43,779 bases of DNA from a virus, in IMG/VR virus record IMGVR_UViG_3300033149_003707, positions 1 through 43,779 of that record. One strand, 5' to 3'. The position numbers were made by a program, and so were the translations under genes. Under the pieces are notes generated by a model. It did no database searches. It was not told the origin of the DNA and was given only the letters and a program-made list of their open reading frames with translations. This document shows, piece after piece, positions 7,645 to 35,695 of this stretch (positions are counted from its first letter, which is position 1; each line of letters starts with the position of its first letter).

Positions 7645-7674
7645 TTGACAAAGTATATAGACTTGTGATATAAT
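7645..7674 (+). promoter_or_regulatory. Consensus sigma-70 promoter (early operon)
   Basis: TTGACA at 7645-7650 and TATAAT at 7669-7674 are both perfect consensus hexamers, separated by 18 bp. The -35 is preceded by AC (ACTTGACA), as in the promoters at 13586 and 25703. The predicted start at about 7681 is the first base of the leader RNA stem. Confidence 0.85.
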
Positions 7675-7680
7675 AAAAAT

Positions 7681-7795
7681 GTGGAAACGTTAAAAATGAA
7701 CAGCGAGAACAAAGACCCCAAAGCTGAAAATCTGTCTTTTCCTCTCCGTCCTGGAGAAAAACGTTTCCACCAGATTAAAGCTGAGGGGTCTTTTT
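7681..7795 (+). ncRNA. Structured leader RNA, copy A (pseudoknot plus terminator-like stem)
   Basis: Stem 1 pairs 7681-7691 with 7760-7770 (11 bp, perfect). A small hairpin at 7743-7757 has a GUCCU loop. Stem 2 pairs GACCCC (7714-7719) with GGGGTC (7785-7790), and can extend through AGCT/AGCT (7722-7725 with 7779-7782) and AATCTG/CAGATT (7729-7734 with 7771-7776). The arms of stems 1 and 2 interleave, which makes a pseudoknot. Stem 2 is followed by TTTTT (7791-7795), so it can act as an intrinsic terminator. The same architecture with different stem sequences recurs at 13622-13734. The gene at 7813 starts 18 bases after the U run. This is a likely cis-acting attenuator or riboswitch; ligand or regulator unknown. 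Confidence 0.72.
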
Positions 7796-7812
7796 CTCCA
7801 AGGGAGGATTCA

Positions 7813-8097
7813 ATGAAAGATAAAATTAAAGAAGTTAAAGAATACGATGGTGTATTTATTAACGATCGTTATGATTATTGGGCAACTTCTCCGGTTAATA
7901 ATGGCCCCACTCTTTATGACAAAAAGCTTGATATCTTTTTTCCAGCAACTTACCATTCTCCAGGATATGTTATTGAATTCAATGACTTTATTTATGGTAG
8001 AAAATTGAGAATGAAATATAAGAATGATAAGCTTGGGATGTTAGACTTAACAAAAGTTTATACAGCTGTTATGAGATGGGTTGAAATAGATGATTAA
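7813..8097 (+). CDS. Unknown protein downstream of leader RNA, 94 aa
   Basis: The ATG at 7813 is chosen because AAGGGAGG lies six bases upstream. The frame is open further upstream, but that part is the structured leader. The product is 94 residues, soluble, aromatic-rich (YDYWATSPVNNGPTLYD, FFPATYHSPGYVIEF) and mixed alpha/beta, with no motif I recognise. It is the first gene of the early operon and shares its type of leader RNA only with the PurZ-like gene. That shared control is the best clue to a related role, for example in nucleotide metabolism or DNA modification, but this is inference. Confidence 0.65.
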   Translation: MKDKIKEVKEYDGVFINDRYDYWATSPVNNGPTLYDKKLDIFFPATYHSPGYVIEFNDFIYGRKLRMKYKNDKLGMLDLTKVYTAVMRWVEIDD

Positions 8098-8666: not shown

Positions 8667-8710
8667 AATGTCGGATTCCCCTCAGCACAGTCCAATTGAG
8701 GGAGATTAGA

Positions 8711-8777
8711 GTCGAAACGGCCGGAATTACCGGTCGTCACCTTGAGGTTAGCCTCTCAAGGTCTGATGATGACAGGC
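8711..8777 (+). ncRNA. Type II hammerhead ribozyme
   Basis: All core elements are present in type II order. C11.1 8713 and GAA 8714-8716 are followed by stem III, 8717-8724 with 8730-8737 (8 bp including A15.1-U16.1, loop AATTA). Then come the cleavage nucleotide C17 at 8738 (triplet GTC), stem I 8739-8746 with 8755-8762 (8 bp), and the core CTGATGA 8763-8769. Stem II is short, GTC 8711-8713 with GAC 8771-8773, and one extra U (8770) lies before it. Loop I GCCT (8751-8754) is complementary to AGGC (8774-8777) next to stem II, giving the tertiary pseudoknot expected in such ribozymes. Predicted cleavage is between 8738 and 8739, leaving a 62-base 5' leader on the mRNA of the gene at 8801. Confidence 0.9.
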
Positions 8778-8800
8778 CAAAAAATAAAAAGGAGGTCATA

Positions 8801-13621: not shown

Positions 13622-13734
13622 ATGGACCGGAACAATGGAATCGATAAATAAAGCCCTGGTGTTTATAGTCTATCCCTCTGACCGTCCAGGTCATCCGGTT
13701 CATCAGATGAAAGCACTGGGGCTTATTTTCTTTT
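13622..13734 (+). ncRNA. Structured leader RNA, copy B (purZ-like leader)
   Basis: Stem 1 pairs 13622-13630 with 13695-13703 (9 bp, one G-U). A hairpin at 13679-13693 has 5 bp and loop GUCCA. Stem 2 pairs 13651-13661 with 13714-13724 (11 bp, two G-U) and is followed by the U-rich ATTTTCTTTT. The arms interleave as in copy A. Stem sequences differ from copy A but pairing is kept. The hairpin loop (GUCC) and the linker CAGATGAAAG (13704-13713; CAGATTAAAG in copy A) are conserved. The ribosome-binding site AAGGAGG (13736-13742) lies directly after the U run. This is covariation-supported evidence for a cis-regulatory RNA controlling the PurZ-like gene. Confidence 0.75.
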
Positions 13735-13748
13735 AAAGGAGGTTTTAA

Positions 13749-14792
13749 ATGGAAAGTTTCATTGACATCGTCTGCGGTGGTTTTTATGGGGATGAAGGAA
13801 AAGGGCAGATCTGTGCTTGGTTAGCTCATAAGCAAATATTACAAGGAGCACCTTATAATTTTGCTGTAAGAGTAGGAGGATCAAATGCTGAACATAGGTT
13901 TGAATTACCTAATGGCGTGAGGTACACAGGTAGAGTGCTTCCGGTGGCTGGTTGGGTGGACCCAAAGATTAAACTTGTCCTCGGAGCAGGTCACATGATT
14001 AAATTGGAAAGTCTTTTTCGTGAAATAAAAGAACTTGAATCCATGTACGGTAAACAACGTGACCGCATTTTCATCGATCCTCAAGCAGGAGTAATTGATC
14101 CTGCTCATATAGAAGCGGGAAAAGAGGCGGCAACGTTCCGTGGATCGACCCATCAGGGTACTGGACAAGCTGTAGCTCACAAAGTTGTTCGAGACGGCAA
14201 ATTTAAGACAGCCCGAGATTATTCGGAACTTCGTAATTATGTTTGTGAGGATACTGTCATGCTCATGAATACTTGGATGCGAAAGGGAGAAATAGGATTA
14301 CTGGAAGGTTCTCAAGGTGCTTTCCTGTCTCTAAATCATGGTTATTACCCATATTGCACATCAAAAGATGTTACTCCAGCAGCACTGCTTGCAGAGGCGG
14401 GCATTTCAACTCGTCGTGTTCGCCATATTTGGGCTGTTTTCAAGGCCGTACCTACGAGAGTACCCGGAAACTCTGGTCCGGCGGATGGACGGGAACTTTC
14501 CTGGGAAGAATTGGAGAAGGCGATTGGTAAACAAATTCCTGAAGATACCAAACGTCAAACCGATTCTGGAGACAGAGAACGTATATTTCTGTGGTCTTGG
14601 AAAGAATTCATGAAATCCATAAATCTTATCGGGCCGACCCATATGGCTCTTACTTTTATTGATTGGTGGCCCACGTCATTAATGGGGTCTCTTCCAGATG
14701 ATTTAATTAAGGATATGGAACGTCTGGCTGGATGTTCGGTAAACATTGTACGTAATGGTCCAGCTTGGGGAGACTATTATATTCCCAAATAG
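13749..14792 (+). CDS. purZ: Adenylosuccinate-synthetase-family enzyme, PurZ/PurZ0-like, 347 aa
   Basis: The P-loop is GDEGKGQ (14-20). GGSNAEHR (43-50) corresponds to the GG-NAGH motif of PurA with Glu in place of Gly and catalytic His49 kept. GSTHQGTG (132-139) matches the IMP/phosphate loop. EGSQGAFLSLNHGYYPYCTS (186-205) is the strongest family signature. TFID (302-305) aligns with the guanine-specifying TKLD of PurA. Length matches archaeal PurA and phage PurZ (about 340-370), not bacterial PurA (about 430). Phage PurZ converts dGMP and aspartate toward 2-aminoadenine nucleotides. Asp15 is retained here; my recollection is that characterised PurZ has Ser at this position, so a PurZ0-like or PurA-like activity is possible. 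No MazZ or DatZ gene is seen. The gene has its own promoter, leader RNA and an AAGGAGG site. Confidence 0.78.
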   Translation: MESFIDIVCGGFYGDEGKGQICAWLAHKQILQGAPYNFAVRVGGSNAEHRFELPNGVRYTGRVLPVAGWVDPKIKLVLGAGHMIKLESLFREIKELESMYGKQRDRIFIDPQAGVIDPAHIEAGKEAATFRGSTHQGTGQAVAHKVVRDGKFKTARDYSELRNYVCEDTVMLMNTWMRKGEIGLLEGSQGAFLSLNHGYYPYCTSKDVTPAALLAEAGISTRRVRHIWAVFKAVPTRVPGNSGPADGRELSWEELEKAIGKQIPEDTKRQTDSGDRERIFLWSWKEFMKSINLIGPTHMALTFIDWWPTSLMGSLPDDLIKDMERLAGCSVNIVRNGPAWGDYYIPK

Positions 14793-18250: not shown

Positions 18251-18473
18251 AAATATACTCTTAGAAAAGCTAAGGGATTGGAGATGGGCTGTACAACATG
18301 GGCATACTAAAAGAAGAGATTTTCGTAATTGGCATGATGATGATGAACAAGCTTACCAACAAATCCGTCAGCTAATAGAGGTTTGTTACGGATGTGATTA
18401 TTTTCAGGATGACACAGAATTATATAAATCAGAAGCAGAAGTAAAGGCAGGAGTAAGAATAAAAGAAAAATGA
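18234..18473 (+). CDS. DEQAYQQI-family small protein 3, 79 aa
   Basis: The start at 18234 lies within the end of the previous gene and has AAGGA upstream. The pattern LLEKLRDWRWAV then WHDDDEQAYQQIRQLIE matches the proteins at 17054 and 17751 closely, so recent tandem duplication is likely. A CYGC knuckle follows at about 50-53. Overlaps the methyltransferase start by four bases. Confidence 0.55.
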   Translation: MKEPGKNILLEKLRDWRWAVQHGHTKRRDFRNWHDDDEQAYQQIRQLIEVCYGCDYFQDDTELYKSEAEVKAGVRIKEK

Positions 18474-19627
18474 GCCTTGAGCGAAATGATTTTATTAATA
18501 AGATAATTCATGGAGACTGTCTTAACATTATGAAAGAAATGCCTGAGAATTCTATTGATGCAATCGTTACTGACCCCCCGTATGGTTTGTCGTTTATGAA
18601 TAAAGATTGGGATAAATTAAACAAGCATATTTCTCCATTGCCCGAAGGAAAATATCCTAAAAATAAAAATCTTAAGGAAATGAGACAAGGTGGATCAGAT
18701 GGCTATTTAATACAGCTTTGGCATGCTCAATGGCTTAAAGAAGCCTACCAAATCCTAAAACCAGGTGGGTCAATGCTGATCATGGGTGGTACAAGGACTT
18801 TTCACAGGCTTATGTGTGCTATAGAGGATACGGGCTTTATTATCAAAGACACTTTAATGTGGCTATATGGGGGTGGATTTCCAAAAGCACAAGATTTAAC
18901 AAATATGCTTAAGAAGAGAGGTATAGAAACTAATAAATGGCAAGGTTTTAAAATTGGCGGTATTAAGCCAGCTTTCGAGCCGATAGTCTGGGCAGTTAGG
19001 CCCCCAAAGGGTTCTTATATTGACAATGTATTAAAATGGGAGGTAGGTGCGGTTAATGTGGATAAATGTAGGATTGTGACTAATGATAAACTGGTAAGAC
19101 CAAATATATCCCGAGGGAAAAATGAAGCAATTTTCCCACTTGGTGCAGGCATCCAGAATGAACCCAAAGGCCGTTTTCCTGCAAATATTATTTTAGATGA
19201 GGAGGCTGGTAGATTATTAGATGAGCAGAGTGGAATATTGAAGAGTGGGGACTTAACGGGGCAACCAAGAGTAGAAAATAAGAATGTTTATGGAAAGGCT
19301 GGAGCGACTATAGGAAATCCACGTTATTGGCAAGGAGATTCAGGTGGTGCTTCACGTTTCTTCTATTGTGCTAAAGCTTCTAAATCTGAAAGGGGTAAAA
19401 ACAATAAACATCCTACCGTAAAACCTATAAAACTTTTTAAGTGGCTGATAAAACTTGTAACCAGAGAAGGACAGGTCGTTCTTGACCCCTTTATCGGCTC
19501 TGGCACGACTGCTATTGCCGCTTATAGAGTTGGCCGTAAATATATCGGTATAGAAAGAGAAAAAGAATACATAAAGATAGCTGAAGAACGACTTGCTCAG
19601 GGAGTGTTATGGAGTGAAATGGCTTGA
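18470..19627 (+). CDS. DNA methyltransferase 1 (N4/N6, beta-type order), 385 aa
   Basis: SAM-dependent DNA amino-methyltransferase. Catalytic motif IV DPPYG is at about residues 36-40, preceded by IIHGDCLNIM. The SAM-binding motif DPFIGSGTT lies near 339-347, followed by KYIGIE, so the catalytic motif precedes the SAM motif. The insert of about 200 residues between them probably holds target recognition. First of three tandem methyltransferase genes whose N- and C-terminal segments are related. Target sequence and base are unknown. It could protect phage DNA from host restriction. Confidence 0.88.
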   Translation: MSLERNDFINKIIHGDCLNIMKEMPENSIDAIVTDPPYGLSFMNKDWDKLNKHISPLPEGKYPKNKNLKEMRQGGSDGYLIQLWHAQWLKEAYQILKPGGSMLIMGGTRTFHRLMCAIEDTGFIIKDTLMWLYGGGFPKAQDLTNMLKKRGIETNKWQGFKIGGIKPAFEPIVWAVRPPKGSYIDNVLKWEVGAVNVDKCRIVTNDKLVRPNISRGKNEAIFPLGAGIQNEPKGRFPANIILDEEAGRLLDEQSGILKSGDLTGQPRVENKNVYGKAGATIGNPRYWQGDSGGASRFFYCAKASKSERGKNNKHPTVKPIKLFKWLIKLVTREGQVVLDPFIGSGTTAIAAYRVGRKYIGIEREKEYIKIAEERLAQGVLWSEMA

Positions 19628-20702
19628 CGATTTTATTAATAAGATAATTTGCGGCGATTGTTTGGAGGTGATGAGGAAAATGCCCGATGAGTGTGTAGAT
19701 ATGGTTCTAACAAGTCCTCCTTACTGGGGTCTCAGGGATTATGGTATCCAACAAATATTTGGTGGAAATAAAGATTGTAAGCATGAATGGGGGGATGAGA
19801 TAAAAAGAATAAATTCTGGCGGAAGAGGATATAAACAAGATACCAATAAAGGCTCATTTTTTATAAACAAACAATGTATATGCCAAAAATGCGGAGCGTG
19901 GAGAGGCCAACTTGGGCTTGAGCCAACGCCAGAGATGTATATTAAGCACCTCACTAACATCTTTAACGAAGTTAAGCGAGTGCTGAAGAAGGAAGGGACG
20001 CTGTGGTTGAATATTGGGGATACTTATGGGGGATCAGGTGGCGATCACAAAGAATGGCATAAGAATGATGCTGGATTTCAGGGAGGATTAATGAGGGGTT
20101 GTCAACTAAAAAAGTTAATGCCTAAATGTCTCCTGATGATTCCAGAACGGCTGGCATGGTCATTAATTCAAGACGGCTGGATTCTTAGAAATAAAATCAT
20201 CTGGCATAAGCCCAATGCAATGCCTTCATCAGTTAAAGATAGATTTAGTAATAAATGGGAGTATCTATTTCTATTTTCTAAAAATAAAAAATATTACTTT
20301 GATTTAGATTTGATAAGAGAGCCTTATATAAAGCCATTGAACAGATGGGGCGGCGATAAATTAATAGCTAAAGGTAAATCTACGTGGGACGAAGCGACTG
20401 GACAGACAACTTATCGTAATAGGGATATGAGGCCAAATGCGCTTGGTAAGAATCCAGGTGATATATGGATGATTAATACACAACCCTTCCCTAAGGCTCA
20501 TTTTGCTGTATTTCCTGAAAAACTATGCGAAAAACCGATAAAAGCCGGCTGCCCAGAGGGCGGGATAGTTCTTGACCCGTTCTGTGGGTCCGGGACGGCA
20601 TTATTCGTGGCTCAACAATTAAAGCGTTGGTACATCGGCATAGAAATGAACCCGGAATACTGTAAAATAGCTGAAAAACGATTGGCTCAGGGGGTATTGT
20701 GA
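19614..20702 (+). CDS. DNA methyltransferase 2 (TSPPYW type), 362 aa
   Basis: The GTG start at 19614 is chosen because it aligns exactly with the MKW-DDFINKIICGDC start of the next methyltransferase. The longer TTG form is unlikely. Motif IV is TSPPYWG (about 34-40), a form often found in N4-cytosine enzymes but also in some N6-adenine enzymes. The SAM motif DPFCGSGTA is near 321-329. Residues about 50-100 carry a CxxC pair (CICQKCGAW) and an upstream Cys, probably a zinc-stabilised insert. Overlaps the previous gene by 14 bases and ends one base before the next. Confidence 0.88.
   Translation: MKWLDDFINKIICGDCLEVMRKMPDECVDMVLTSPPYWGLRDYGIQQIFGGNKDCKHEWGDEIKRINSGGRGYKQDTNKGSFFINKQCICQKCGAWRGQLGLEPTPEMYIKHLTNIFNEVKRVLKKEGTLWLNIGDTYGGSGGDHKEWHKNDAGFQGGLMRGCQLKKLMPKCLLMIPERLAWSLIQDGWILRNKIIWHKPNAMPSSVKDRFSNKWEYLFLFSKNKKYYFDLDLIREPYIKPLNRWGGDKLIAKGKSTWDEATGQTTYRNRDMRPNALGKNPGDIWMINTQPFPKAHFAVFPEKLCEKPIKAGCPEGGIVLDPFCGSGTALFVAQQLKRWYIGIEMNPEYCKIAEKRLAQGVL
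19617..19697 (+). repeat. 81-bp direct repeat, copy 1 (methyltransferase 5' ends)
   Basis: Bases 19617-19697 and 20707-20787 are nearly identical in phase, covering the same 27 codons of two tandem methyltransferase genes. They are a homologous-recombination substrate that could delete or expand the array. Confidence 0.85.
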
Positions 20703-20703
20703 A

Positions 20704-21414
20704 ATGAAATGGCCTGACGATTTTATTAACAAGATAATTTGTGGGGATTGTTTGGAGGTGATGAGGAAAATGCCCGATAAGTGTGTAAATTTAATTATAA
20801 TAGACCCGCCCTATGGAATATCTGGATATGCCCAAAAAGAAATTACCCACCCAGGAAGAAAGAAGCCAATAAATCTTTATTTTGGAGATTGGGATAAATT
20901 TGAAGATTTTAGATTATTAATAAATGAAAGCACAAGAATTTTAAAGAGAAATGGAACTATTTATATTTTTGTAAGTTATCGTATTTTTGGAACTGTATTT
21001 GATCTTCTAGATAAAAGATTTAAAAGAGTAAGTCTTTTCGTGTGGCATAAACCAAATCCTGCAATACAAATTTCAAAGACCTCTTACCTTTCAAGTTGTG
21101 AATTAATTTTATGGGCACATAACGAAAAACATACTTTTAATTTCACAAACCAAAGAGAAATGCATAATTTTTGGGAGGGAACTTATCCCATGGGAAAAAA
21201 TAGATGGAAACATCCTACGGCAAAACCTTACAACTTAATCAGTCATTTTATTAAAGTTTCCTCCAATGAAGGCGATATTATTCTTGACCCAATGATGGGT
21301 TCTGGGGTTGTGTTACGAGTTGCTAAAGATTTATATCGTAATTTTGTTGGCATAGAAATGAATCCAGAATACTGCAAGATAGCCGAGGAACGGCTGGCCC
21401 AGAAGGTATTATAA
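20704..21414 (+). CDS. DNA methyltransferase 3 (short), 236 aa
   Basis: The smallest of the trio. DPPYGIS (about 33-39) is motif IV and DPMMGSGV (about 195-202) the SAM-binding motif, followed by FVGIEMNPEYCKIAEERLAQ. The recognition insert is short. The first 27 codons are nearly identical at DNA level to those of the gene at 19614, and the last 20 codons closely resemble both upstream genes, so it arose by tandem duplication with replacement of the central part. Confidence 0.86.
   Translation: MKWPDDFINKIICGDCLEVMRKMPDKCVNLIIIDPPYGISGYAQKEITHPGRKKPINLYFGDWDKFEDFRLLINESTRILKRNGTIYIFVSYRIFGTVFDLLDKRFKRVSLFVWHKPNPAIQISKTSYLSSCELILWAHNEKHTFNFTNQREMHNFWEGTYPMGKNRWKHPTAKPYNLISHFIKVSSNEGDIILDPMMGSGVVLRVAKDLYRNFVGIEMNPEYCKIAEERLAQKVL
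20707..20787 (+). repeat. 81-bp direct repeat, copy 2 (methyltransferase 5' ends)
   Basis: Second copy of the repeat at 19617-19697, with a few mostly third-position differences, indicating a recent duplication under coding constraint. Confidence 0.85.
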
Positions 21415-25349: not shown

Positions 25350-25641
25350 GGTGGACAAATGGTGGACGAATGGTGGACGAAATATATCCGGAGAATATAT
25401 CTTCTAAATACTATCGAGACCCCTCAGGGCATATGGTGAACGGAAGGGTGGACGAAGGGTGGACGGTGGTGGACGCTGCAGGGTTCTTCCCCCCCTAAAA
25501 AGCAATTATGGAGTGGTGGACGAGTAATGGACAAGTGCCATTATTTAAATACCCCCCTGCACTATATGCAGGGGGTATTAAATGGTCGTCCGTCCACTCT
25601 CCCCTTATTTTGGGGGTGGACAGTGGACGCTGATGGTGAAC
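25350..25641 (+). repeat. Iteron array (GGTGGAC repeats), candidate replication origin
   Basis: Three tandem 11-bp units with core GGTGGAC begin at 25350, 25361 and 25372. Further cores lie at 25447, 25458, 25468, 25515 and 25615, with variants at 25435 and 25635 (GGTGAAC), 25526 (AATGGAC) and 25622 (AGTGGAC), and an inverted copy near 25592-25597. Spacing in clusters is 10-12 bp, one helical turn. The stretch 25347-25739 holds no gene and follows the primase-helicase gene directly, the classic place for an iteron origin. The same sites could also serve a repressor. Confidence 0.72.
25544..25582 (+). other. Large imperfect inverted repeat within the iteron region
   Basis: The left arm 25544-25561 (TTTAAATACCCCCCTGCA) pairs with the right arm 25567-25582 around the loop CTATA, with single-base bulges for the extra A and extra C. 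It lacks a U run, so it is more likely an origin hairpin or cruciform than a simple intrinsic terminator, though it could end the leftward-lying operon. Confidence 0.6.
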
Positions 25642-25702: not shown

Positions 25703-25732
25703 TTGACAAATTTCCCATTACTGTGTTTTAAT
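25703..25732 (+). promoter_or_regulatory. Sigma-70 promoter of lysis/late genes
   Basis: TTGACA 25703-25708, an 18-bp spacer, then TTTAAT 25727-25732. It is again preceded by AC (ACTTGACA) as at 7645 and 13586. The predicted start (about 25739) is next to the ATG at 25740, so the transcript would be essentially leaderless. Confidence 0.7.
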
Positions 25733-33050: not shown

Positions 33051-33401
33051 ATGAATAAACAAGGTAAAGTTTGGGGAGAGACGGAAGAGATTTTTAACGA
33101 TGGTAGAGTCTCTATCCATTATCTCTGGATCAGGAAAGGAGGTTATTGTTCAGAACACAAACATTCAAAAAAATCGAATTTGTTCTATATTATCAACGGG
33201 CAGCTTGAGATATCTATCTGGAGGGAAAAGGGCGTGGATAAAACGATTATAGGTGATGGGGAAAGCTCCTTTGTTCCTCCTGATGTATATCACAAATTCA
33301 GGGCGATTCGTGACACGGAATGTATAGAAATTTACGAGGTTAAACTTGAACCTAATGATATAGACCGGCGAACAATTGGAGGTATTAAGTGGAACAGGTG
33401 A
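33051..33401 (+). CDS. Cupin-domain protein (sugar-isomerase type), 116 aa
   Basis: Single cupin barrel. Motif 1 is GGYCSEHKHSKKSNLFYIINGQLEI (residues about 28-52), with His32 and His34 and the NG turn. Motif 2 is GDGESSFVPPDVYHKFRAI with a third His. This is the metal-binding cupin of the type in mannose-6-phosphate isomerase C-terminal domains and related sugar-handling proteins. It opens a glycan-related cassette and overlaps the next gene by 13 bases. AAAAGGAAAAG precedes the ATG. Substrate unknown. Confidence 0.78.
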   Translation: MNKQGKVWGETEEIFNDGRVSIHYLWIRKGGYCSEHKHSKKSNLFYIINGQLEISIWREKGVDKTIIGDGESSFVPPDVYHKFRAIRDTECIEIYEVKLEPNDIDRRTIGGIKWNR

Positions 33402-35695
33402 TAACTACCAGAAATCGAAATATTAAACATATTTTAGAACAAAAAGAGCAGCAACAAAGAGAAAATGTGCAAAAGACACGAAAAATTATAACACAGATGA
33501 TAACTACACGTGATACGGCAGTAAATAGAATAGTTGAAAAAAAGAGCAAGCAAGATGAATATCGCAGGATTTGGGCCGAACTAAGAAAGAAGAAATTCGG
33601 GGCCATACCTGGTTATTTTCCTTATACTCAAGAAGTAAATAGACATTTTTCAGAAGTACTTGAAGATGGGGCATGGAAAGGCCATCGATGTTTCATTATC
33701 GGTGGCGGCGAGAGTCTCAAAGGATTCGATTTCTCAAAGCTTAATGGTGAACTTATTATTGGGGTGAATAGGGCTTATGAGAAAGTCGATTGTTCAATTA
33801 TGTTTGCAATGGATTATGAATTTTATAAATGGATAGTTAGAGGCAAACTGGGCCAAAAAGCAAAAGAGAAGTTCGATAATTTCAAAGGCTATAAAGTCTG
33901 GGTTGATTCAGCAAAATATTCATATCTGAAAGATATTTTTCTCTTGAATTGTATCGGTACTGATGGATTCTCGTGGTCCTTAAAAGATGGGTTGGCCAGT
34001 GGCTGCAATTCTGGCTATGCGGCTTTGAACTTAGCTGTGTGTCTAGGTGCTAATCCTATTTATTTGTTGGGTTTTGACATGAGAGGGGGACATTGGCATA
34101 CCGAATATCCTGATAAGCAACCTGAATCCGTTTATAAGAAATTCAAAATATATTTTGAGAAGATTGCACCCGAATTGAAACAAAAAGGAATCAAAGTCAT
34201 AAACCTCAATCCAAATAGCACCTTAAGGTGCTTTGAATTCGGCAAGTTTGAGGATATCAGGCGGGAGACAATAACGGCGATAACACCGACAGGAGATAGA
34301 CCATTAGCATTTGCCCTATGTCAGCAGTGGATGAGGCATCAGACGAGGCAGCCAGACCAATGGATTGTTGTAGATGATGGCAAAAAGCCCATGAAACCAT
34401 CTATGCTGATGCAATATGTGAGAAGAGAACCGCAACCTAGCGACCCCAAACATACACTCATCCTTAATCTTAAGAAAGCGATGCCGCTTATAAATGGCGA
34501 TAAGATTATGATTATAGAAGATGATGAGTATTATGCACCTGAATATATAGCGAAGATGGCACTTGGACTTGATCGATATGAGGTTGTAGGTATTGGAAAG
34601 AGCAAGTATTATCACCTGCCTTCGGGCGGTTATTTTAAGATTGGGAATACCACTCATGCCTCTCTTGCAGAGACGGGTTTCAGGAGTTCCTTTCTACCAG
34701 AATTTAAAGCTCTTTTAGACAGAAATAATGTTTATCTAGATTTTGATTTATGGAAAAAGATTAGTAAAAAAGGACGAGGATTTATTTTTTTAGATGATGA
34801 TAGAAATCCCCTCTATGTCGGTATGAAGGGGCTTCCCGGAAGGACTGGAATAGGCAGAGGTCATGATCCGACATTTTATAAAAAATATCCTCAAGATAAA
34901 GACAGGGCAGTCCTCAAGAAGTGGATACCTAAGGATTATAATATTTATATGGATGTACTTAATAAGAAGTTGACAGATAATAATTATCAACTATATTTTC
35001 CTGATATAACCGGAATAACTGTCTGTTATAACACAAAGGATTTAATAGAGCGGGCTTACAATTCAGTCCGTAAATTTCATCCTTATATGCCTATTATTAT
35101 TATCGATGGGTCTGATCCAAAAGACCCGTGTGCTTCTTATATTAAAAGCCTATCGTCTAATCTGACCACTGTTATTTCTCTCGGATATAATATCGGTCAT
35201 GGTAAGGGTATGGTAATGGGGATAAATAATGCTAAAACAAAGTATGCTCTTATTTTTGATTCCGATATAGAGATGCTGAAATCCCCTGTTCAGGCCATGT
35301 TGGAGATGATGGAAGAGGACACATTCGGGGTCGGCTTCATACAAAAAGTTGGGATGGATGGTTATGATTATGGAGTTAAGCCTGAACATAAAGGACAGGA
35401 ATGGATGCTATATTTACATCCTTATTTTCAATTAATAAATATCGAGAATTATAGGAAATTTCACCCCTATGTTCATCATGGTGCACCCTGTTATTTGACA
35501 ATGCGAGACATTTATAAACGGGGATTATCAAATAAGATATTAAAGGAATTTCCTGGCCTCGGCCATTCGGCTAGTCAGGGCTATGGTTGGAAAGGGAAAC
35601 CGAAGGAATATATAAGACATGATACTCGTGGTACTCGCATTGTACGTAAAAAGAAAAATCTTAATGAAATAGAACAAGGATGGGTCTATAAATGA
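33389..35695 (+). CDS. Multidomain glycosyltransferase (DUF115 + two GT-A domains), 768 aa
   Basis: GTG start with GGAGG six bases upstream. Residues about 1-75 are a charged coiled coil. About 97-290 is a DUF115/MptE-like nucleotide-sugar fold (HRCFIIGGGESLKGFDFS, YLLGFDMRGGHW). About 295-500 is a GT-A-like domain with IMIIEDDEYY (about 375-384, DxD-like). About 540-705 is a GT2-like domain with YALIFDSDIEML (about 619-630, DSD motif) and an IGHGKGMVMGI stretch. It likely transfers sugars to a virion protein or host glycan. Linking three sugar-transfer domains in one protein is unusual for a phage of this size. Neighbours are a cupin, more glycosyltransferases and a sulfotransferase. Confidence 0.8.
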   Translation: MEQVITTRNRNIKHILEQKEQQQRENVQKTRKIITQMITTRDTAVNRIVEKKSKQDEYRRIWAELRKKKFGAIPGYFPYTQEVNRHFSEVLEDGAWKGHRCFIIGGGESLKGFDFSKLNGELIIGVNRAYEKVDCSIMFAMDYEFYKWIVRGKLGQKAKEKFDNFKGYKVWVDSAKYSYLKDIFLLNCIGTDGFSWSLKDGLASGCNSGYAALNLAVCLGANPIYLLGFDMRGGHWHTEYPDKQPESVYKKFKIYFEKIAPELKQKGIKVINLNPNSTLRCFEFGKFEDIRRETITAITPTGDRPLAFALCQQWMRHQTRQPDQWIVVDDGKKPMKPSMLMQYVRREPQPSDPKHTLILNLKKAMPLINGDKIMIIEDDEYYAPEYIAKMALGLDRYEVVGIGKSKYYHLPSGGYFKIGNTTHASLAETGFRSSFLPEFKALLDRNNVYLDFDLWKKISKKGRGFIFLDDDRNPLYVGMKGLPGRTGIGRGHDPTFYKKYPQDKDRAVLKKWIPKDYNIYMDVLNKKLTDNNYQLYFPDITGITVCYNTKDLIERAYNSVRKFHPYMPIIIIDGSDPKDPCASYIKSLSSNLTTVISLGYNIGHGKGMVMGINNAKTKYALIFDSDIEMLKSPVQAMLEMMEEDTFGVGFIQKVGMDGYDYGVKPEHKGQEWMLYLHPYFQLINIENYRKFHPYVHHGAPCYLTMRDIYKRGLSNKILKEFPGLGHSASQGYGWKGKPKEYIRHDTRGTRIVRKKKNLNEIEQGWVYK

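What the first reader, a model, noticed from the sequence alone, without database searches (positions are those of the whole stretch)
13622..13734. Twin pseudoknot leader RNAs with covarying stems: candidate undescribed riboswitch/attenuator
The leaders at 7681-7795 and 13622-13734 share one design. The transcript starts on stem 1. The 5' arm of stem 2 lies inside the stem 1 loop, and a 5-bp hairpin with a GUCC loop follows. Then come the stem 1 3' arm, a conserved linker CAGATNAAAG and the stem 2 3' arm, and last a U-rich run directly before the ribosome-binding site. Stem sequences differ while pairing is preserved (for example TCTCC/GGAGA versus TGACC/GGTCA), which is covariation. One copy controls the PurZ-like gene, so sensing of a purine (deoxy)nucleotide, or control by a phage protein, is conceivable. 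I match it to no known class.
Basis: partly seen in the sequence, partly recalled or inferred. Interest (0 to 1): 0.88.

Follow-up and report, generated by a model that had tools for sequence, protein, structure and literature searches.

The report
Twin pseudoknot leaders in one phage
Two early messages of one uncultured phage begin with the same elaborate RNA knot, built from different letters that still pair; it is probably a stop-or-go switch on transcription, but it was found nowhere else and neither its trigger nor its function is shown.

Summary
Leaders 7681-7797 (A) and 13622-13734 (B) each start at the predicted +1 of the two best promoters of the window. Both fold as S1(11/10 bp) - 19-nt loop - S2(9/14 bp) - 5-bp P3 - S1' - S2' - U-tract - ribosome-binding site. 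They are the two strongest pseudoknots in 43.8 kb. At most 1 of 3000 shuffles of each leader matches them, and stem letters differ by compensatory changes. The class claim fails so far: I found no third copy in this genome, ~20 related phages with the same gene order, 80 purA/purZ-bearing contigs, pattern scans of IMG/VR and 85k genomes, phage records or Rfam. Covariation therefore rests on two paralogues. The purine-ligand idea weakens, because the downstream enzyme keeps the PurA-type catalytic Asp that known phage PurZ replace by Ser. The 'conserved' blocks (GTCC, CAGATNAAAG) also lie in an open frame in both leaders (RPG..HQ[IM]KA.G), so part of the conservation may be coding; that evidence is mixed. 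Most likely it is a duplicated, phage-specific pseudoknotted attenuator: S2 plus U-tract is terminator-like, and read-through is gated by whatever occupies the leader (a ribosome or a protein more likely than a metabolite). A put-like antiterminator and a 5' mRNA cap remain open.

The parts
7645..7674 (+). promoter A, TTGACA-18-TATAAT with TG before -10
   Evidence: 12 of 12 consensus match; start site not measured
7681..7691 (+). leader A stem 1, 5' arm (predicted +1 at its first base)
   Evidence: 11 bp with 7760-7770, -19.5 kcal/mol stacking
7692..7710 (+). leader A 19-nt loop L1, holds ATG 7696
7711..7719 (+). leader A stem 2, 5' arm AAAGACCCC
   Evidence: 9 bp with 7785-7793, -18.4
7743..7757 (+). 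leader A hairpin P3, TCTCC-GTCCT-GGAGA
7760..7770 (+). leader A stem 1, 3' arm
7771..7781 (+). leader A conserved block CAGATTAAAGC (can pair with AATCTG upstream)
7785..7793 (+). leader A stem 2, 3' arm GGGGTCTTT
7791..7797 (+). leader A U-tract TTTTTCT
   Evidence: T-score 4.0
7802..7808 (+). Shine-Dalgarno GGGAGGA of the 94-aa gene
   Evidence: sequence
7696..7812 (+). open frame across leader A (MNSENKDPKAENLSFPLRPGEKRFHQIKAEGSFSPREDS), in frame with the next gene, no stop
   Evidence: translation not shown
7813..8097 (+). 94-aa gene behind leader A, unknown function
   Evidence: no Pfam, PHROG or phage relative
13586..13615 (+). promoter B, TTGACA-18-TACAAT
   Evidence: 11 of 12 consensus match
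13622..13631 (+). leader B stem 1, 5' arm
   Evidence: 10 bp with 13694-13703, -19.6
13632..13650 (+). leader B 19-nt loop L1, holds ATG 13635
13651..13664 (+). leader B stem 2, 5' arm AAGCCCTGGTGTTT
   Evidence: 14 bp with 13711-13724, -25.2
13679..13693 (+). leader B hairpin P3, TGACC-GTCCA-GGTCA
13694..13703 (+). leader B stem 1, 3' arm
13704..13714 (+). leader B conserved block CAGATGAAAGC (overlaps stem 2 from 13711)
13711..13724 (+). leader B stem 2, 3' arm AAGCACTGGGGCTT
13723..13734 (+). leader B U-tract TTATTTTCTTTT
   Evidence: T-score 3.8
13635..13736 (+). open frame across leader B (MESINKALVFIVYPSDRPGHPVHQMKALGLIFF, stop TAA overlaps the Shine-Dalgarno)
   Evidence: translation not shown
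13735..13742 (+). Shine-Dalgarno AAAGGAGG
   Evidence: sequence
13749..14792 (+). adenylosuccinate-synthetase-like gene (keeps catalytic Asp, GDEGKG)
   Evidence: PF00709 7e-37

Best explanation
A promoter-proximal transcription attenuator built as a pseudoknot and duplicated within this phage. RNA polymerase starts at the first base of stem 1. Stem 1 and P3 form first and hold the 5' arm of stem 2 in an open loop. When the 3' arm of stem 2 emerges it pairs across the loop, directly ahead of a U-tract, and acts as an intrinsic terminator or strong pause before the ribosome-binding site. Read-through to the operon happens when something occupies the leader and keeps stem 2 from closing. The likeliest occupant is a ribosome on the frame that runs through the whole leader, or an RNA-binding protein; a metabolite is possible but less likely. 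Shown: the pairing, its conservation between copies, its position at two promoters, the U-tracts. Inferred: transcription starts, termination, gating, trigger.
For: Two top pseudoknots of the window at the start of its two best promoters. Shuffle odds at most 1/3000 per copy. Five double-compensatory pairs plus one G-U in S1 and two in P3. The 19-nt loop is identical in length. A U-tract directly follows the G-C part of S2 in both, at a T-score met by 0.24% of positions. S1 forms alone before S2' is made (folds of +1 to S1': -23.8 and -24.0). Both leaders end at a strong Shine-Dalgarno, so the element stands between promoter and first gene.
Against: S2 closes a 46-65-nt loop, far larger than in ordinary terminators. 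S1 and S2 share no bases, so there is no classical antiterminator. In A a nested S2-only fold (-35.8) looks more stable than a rough pseudoknot estimate (-27). No third copy was found, and related phages use short plain leaders at the same promoters. No transcript data.
Confidence: 0.42

Rival explanations
1. The leaders are primarily short coding frames (leader peptides): a 33-aa peptide in B whose stop overlaps the next ribosome-binding site, and an N-terminal extension in A. The conserved blocks are codons for RPG and HQ[IM]KA, and the RNA folding is a by-product or serves ribosome-coupled attenuation or reinitiation.
For: One frame is open through both leaders, with an ATG at the same place. 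All five differences in the two conserved blocks fall on third codon positions (P=0.004). Spacings between the blocks differ by whole codons. CAGAT.AAAGC...GGGG.CTT hits elsewhere mostly read as QIKA.GL inside protein genes.
Against: An unbiased alignment does not keep frame (P=0.07). Matched other frames score 26 and 19 against 31. The A-B peptide match is no better than chance hits in the same genome. The start codons have no real Shine-Dalgarno. No peptide relatives. Coding does not explain the long compensated stems.
Confidence: 0.2
2. A put-like antiterminator: as with putL and putR of HK022, two related promoter-proximal RNAs bind the elongating polymerase and make it ignore later terminators in the two early operons.
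For: One phage, two similar structured RNAs, one at the start of each of two early transcripts, as reported for HK022 (PMC9378689).
Against: put RNAs are about 70 nt with two stem-loops (PMC9378689), and as far as I know have no U-tract or adjacent ribosome-binding site; these are about 113 nt, pseudoknotted, and end at a U-tract and Shine-Dalgarno. Relatives with the same operons lack them.
Confidence: 0.12
3. A constitutive 5' cap: the base-paired 5' end and pseudoknot protect the message from 5' decay and keep the ribosome-binding site open, with no switching.
For: Stem 1 begins at the predicted +1 in both. Two relatives show a simple hairpin at or near the predicted +1 (L004 3429 and L023 7776).
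Against: Leaders of the relatives are not structured beyond chance overall (z about 0). A cap needs neither two crossing stems nor a U-tract.
Confidence: 0.14
4. A metabolite riboswitch, for example for a purine nucleotide.
For: Conserved short blocks at junctions with variable compensated stems are the usual look of an aptamer; one copy precedes a purine-synthesis enzyme.
Against: No third copy or class. The enzyme lacks the PurZ signature residue. The copy before the 94-aa gene has no metabolic link. Conserved blocks could be codons or paired.
Confidence: 0.12

Closest known systems
HK022 putL and putR antitermination RNAs
   Same: two related structured RNAs in one phage, one in each of two early transcripts
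   Different: two stem-loops of about 70 nt (PMC9378689); no H-type pseudoknot between the stems, no terminator-like U-tract, not fused to a ribosome-binding site (own knowledge)
Pseudoknot riboswitches and leader attenuators (general kind)
   Same: pseudoknot in a 5' leader with a terminator-like stem and U-tract before the first gene
   Different: no Rfam match at gathering score or E 5; no ligand, no family, two copies only
HDV-like and theta ribozymes
   Same: same strand order: stem 1 from the 5' end, stem 2 arm inside its loop, hairpin, stem 1 arm, linker, stem 2 arm; known in phages (PMC10879173)
   Different: stem 1 is 10-11 bp, not about 7; 19-nt and 14-23-nt joints where HDV has almost none; no P1.1 partner found by eye; no Rfam hit
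Ribosome-gated attenuators with leader peptides
   Same: open frame through the leader, stop at the next ribosome-binding site in B
   Different: weak or no Shine-Dalgarno, frame runs through the terminator-like stem, no stalling motif known

Membership tests
Any described RNA family (Rfam 15) | covariance-model match at gathering score | tested here: not met
   0 matches in the window at gathering score; at E 5 nothing over the leaders except MIR5241 at 20 bits (gathering 85) running from leader B into the gene
A riboswitch or leader-RNA class | homologues in other genomes with covariation | tested here: not met
   no third copy in relatives, purA/purZ contigs, IMG/VR and genome pattern scans, phage records; exact-pattern scans can miss diverged copies
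A riboswitch class | ligand binding | not testable with these tools
   needs in-line probing
Intrinsic terminator or attenuator | stable stem directly followed by a U-tract | tested here: met
   S2 -18.4 and -25.2, T-scores 4.0 and 3.8
Intrinsic terminator or attenuator | short loop (3-8 nt) | tested here: not met
   loop 46-65 nt; scanner lists neither site
Intrinsic terminator or attenuator | termination in vitro or in vivo | not testable with these tools
   no transcript data
Classical attenuator | mutually exclusive antiterminator sharing bases with the terminator | tested here: inconclusive
   S1 and S2 share no bases; A has a competing TGGAGAAAAA/TTTTTCTCCA helix (-15.9) but B has no counterpart
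HDV-like ribozyme | about 7-bp P1, short joints, P1.1, active-site C | tested here: not met
   P1 10/11 bp, joints 14-23 nt, no Rfam hit; CAGA fits a C-N-R-A string but is short enough to be chance; P1.1 judged by eye
HK022 put | two stem-loops that bind polymerase | tested here: not met
   different fold; binding not tested
PurZ (ligand logic of leader B) | Ser in place of the catalytic Asp | tested here: not met
   GDEGKG in the window against GSTGKG or GSEGKG in phiVC8, S-2L, BpsS-140; PMC12884076

The most novel reading that the evidence does not exclude
A phage-encoded leader RNA class not yet described: a pseudoknotted conditional terminator, used as a module at two promoters of one phage, that switches the replication and nucleotide operons together in response to a trigger (ribosome traffic, a phage protein or a metabolite).
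Probability: 0.25. Interest if true: 0.75.

Novelty: new variant of a known kind. Interest (0 to 1): 0.5.

Why it matters
If it works as proposed, a phage places one RNA switch in front of both its DNA-replication operon and a purine-synthesis gene, a simple way to coordinate two operons without a protein repressor. Relatives show an inverted repeat over the -35 box of the equivalent promoters that this phage lacks, which suggests, by inference only, that RNA control replaced DNA-binding control. Two diverged copies in one genome allow direct swap and compensatory-mutant tests.

Tried and rejected
Rfam at gathering score and E 5: nothing over the leaders. IMG/VR pattern scans CCGTCC..CATCAGAT.AAAGC, CGTCC.GG..CA[CT]CA[AG]AT.AA[AG]GC, CAGAT.AAAGC...GGGG.CTT: only chance or coding matches without the fold. 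Genome contigs: 41 matches, none with the fold and spacing of A and B. Phage blastn and tblastn of leader and peptides: chance. Leader-peptide search: none. Descriptor search of 0.93 Mb of fetched loci and 0.64 Mb around purA/purZ genes: only the two known copies. Pattern over 21 whole related or purA/purZ-bearing records: one hit, reverse strand, in L212, not examined further. HDV-like ribozyme: same strand order but joint lengths and P1 length fail. General 5' hairpins in relatives: not beyond chance. A covariance model was not built: two sequences and a pseudoknot would model little, and a Python descriptor did the search instead. PurZ-ligand link: lost weight on the Asp/Ser test.

Full report
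Observation. I re-read both leaders and listed all stable helices. Stem 1 has 11 pairs in A (7681-7691/7760-7770) and 10 in B (13622-13631/13694-13703). Stem 2 has 9 (7711-7719/7785-7793) and 14 including wobbles (13651-13664/13711-13724). The promoters match consensus at 12 and 11 of 12 positions, so +1 is expected on the first base of stem 1; this is a prediction.

Chance. An exhaustive search for such pseudoknots ranks B first and A second in the + strand; A equals the best seen in thirty shuffled windows of the same size and B is far beyond it. Shuffling each leader 3000 times gives one and zero cases as strong. Five stem 1 pairs and two P3 pairs change on both sides between the copies and still pair, and one more stem 1 pair becomes G-U. 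The U-tracts that follow the G-C part of stem 2 score 4.0 and 3.8 on the usual terminator T-score, a level reached by 0.24% of + strand positions. Structure at the RNA level is therefore well supported, from two paralogous sequences only.

Relatives. DNA polymerase and purA/purZ searches gave about twenty phage contigs with the same gene order nuclease - AAA ATPase - DUF669 - polymerase - adenylosuccinate synthetase. Many have a promoter at the equivalent places, but with short, plain leaders. A structure-based scan of all held loci returned only the two known copies. Pattern scans of IMG/VR, of one genome for each of 84,980 species, of 21 whole related or purA/purZ-bearing records and of phage records found no third copy. 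Exact-pattern scans can miss diverged copies, so absence is not proven, but a widespread class is unlikely.

What the conserved blocks are. They also fall in one open frame in both leaders: CGT CC[T/A] GG[A/T] is Arg-Pro-Gly and CA[C/T] CAG AT[T/G] AAA GC[T/A] is His-Gln-Ile/Met-Lys-Ala. All five differences are third-position changes (P=0.004; the blocks were chosen after seeing them). Against this, a frame-blind alignment does not keep the frame (P=0.07), another matched frame scores 26 against 31, the peptide match is no better than chance hits inside the same genome, and the start codons have no proper ribosome-binding site. I hold a coding contribution as possible, not shown. Some of CAGATNAAAG is also paired: in A CAGATT pairs with AATCTG, in B the AAGC end is part of stem 2.

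The gene context. The gene behind leader B is adenylosuccinate-synthetase-like (PF00709). It keeps Asp in GDEGKG where phiVC8, S-2L and BpsS-140 have Ser. PMC12884076 reports Ser in all 147 phage PurZ sequences and Asp13 in 99% of the PurA group. It falls below both the PurZ and PurA cut-offs of NCBIfam. It and its relatives may be a PurA-like phage clade; the Z-DNA reading is open at best, and three DNA N6/N4-methylase genes sit oddly with a genome without adenine. The gene behind leader A has no relatives in the libraries searched. A common purine ligand is therefore not favoured.

Mechanism. I favour an attenuator: stem 1 and P3 form first (folds of the transcript up to the stem 1 3' arm: -23.8 and -24.0 kcal/mol), stem 2 closes next, right at a U-tract. 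The weak points are the large loop of stem 2, the lack of a base-sharing antiterminator, and in A an unknotted alternative that looks at least as stable (the pseudoknot energies are rough estimates with an assumed penalty). A put-like antiterminator is the closest precedent for twin leaders in one phage (PMC9378689), but the anatomy differs. A 5' cap is simple but does not explain two crossing stems and a U-tract. An HDV-like ribozyme has the same strand order, but stem and joint lengths do not fit and Rfam gives no hit.

Verdict. A real, well-made and duplicated RNA structure without known relatives; function inferred; class status not established. Interest 0.5.

Noticed in passing
window 8710-8781 +: Type II hammerhead ribozyme, 39.2 bits against a gathering score of 37, between ORFs ending 8666 and starting 8803, in the operon behind leader A. 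Loop I (AGCCT) can pair with the tail (AGGCC), as reported for type II hammerheads (PMC3088659). Not reported by Rfam in 12 related loci. The whole-window gathering run did not list it, probably because of its faster filters.
   Followed up: partly
L004 3429, L007 1710 and 6209, L010 7767, L011 3379, L017 1522, L023 7776: Early promoters of relatives carry an inverted repeat TTGACA-N4/5-TGYCA over the -35 box (wider spacing in L023) plus an extended -10, looking like a repressor operator; the window promoters 7645, 13586 and 25703 lack it.
   Followed up: partly
window 13749-14792 and relatives L003, L010, L011, L023: Phage adenylosuccinate-synthetase clade that keeps the PurA catalytic Asp (GDEGKG) although its best phage database matches are PurZ.
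   Followed up: partly
window 25350-25640: Cluster of GGTGGACG / GTCCACC repeats and inverted repeats upstream of a third promoter at 25703; possible replication origin or protein-binding array.
   Followed up: no
window 18470-21414: Three consecutive N6/N4 DNA methylase genes; two carry a long insertion inside the methylase domain.
   Followed up: no
window 33389-35695: 768-aa protein with matches to PHROGs for sialyltransferase and GtrB-like glycosyltransferase.
   Followed up: no
L003 2675-3916: In this relative a short zinc-ribbon-like frame (MYSWRCPYCLERIYSAW...) is fused in frame to the synthetase gene right behind the promoter, another case of an open frame across the leader.
   Followed up: no
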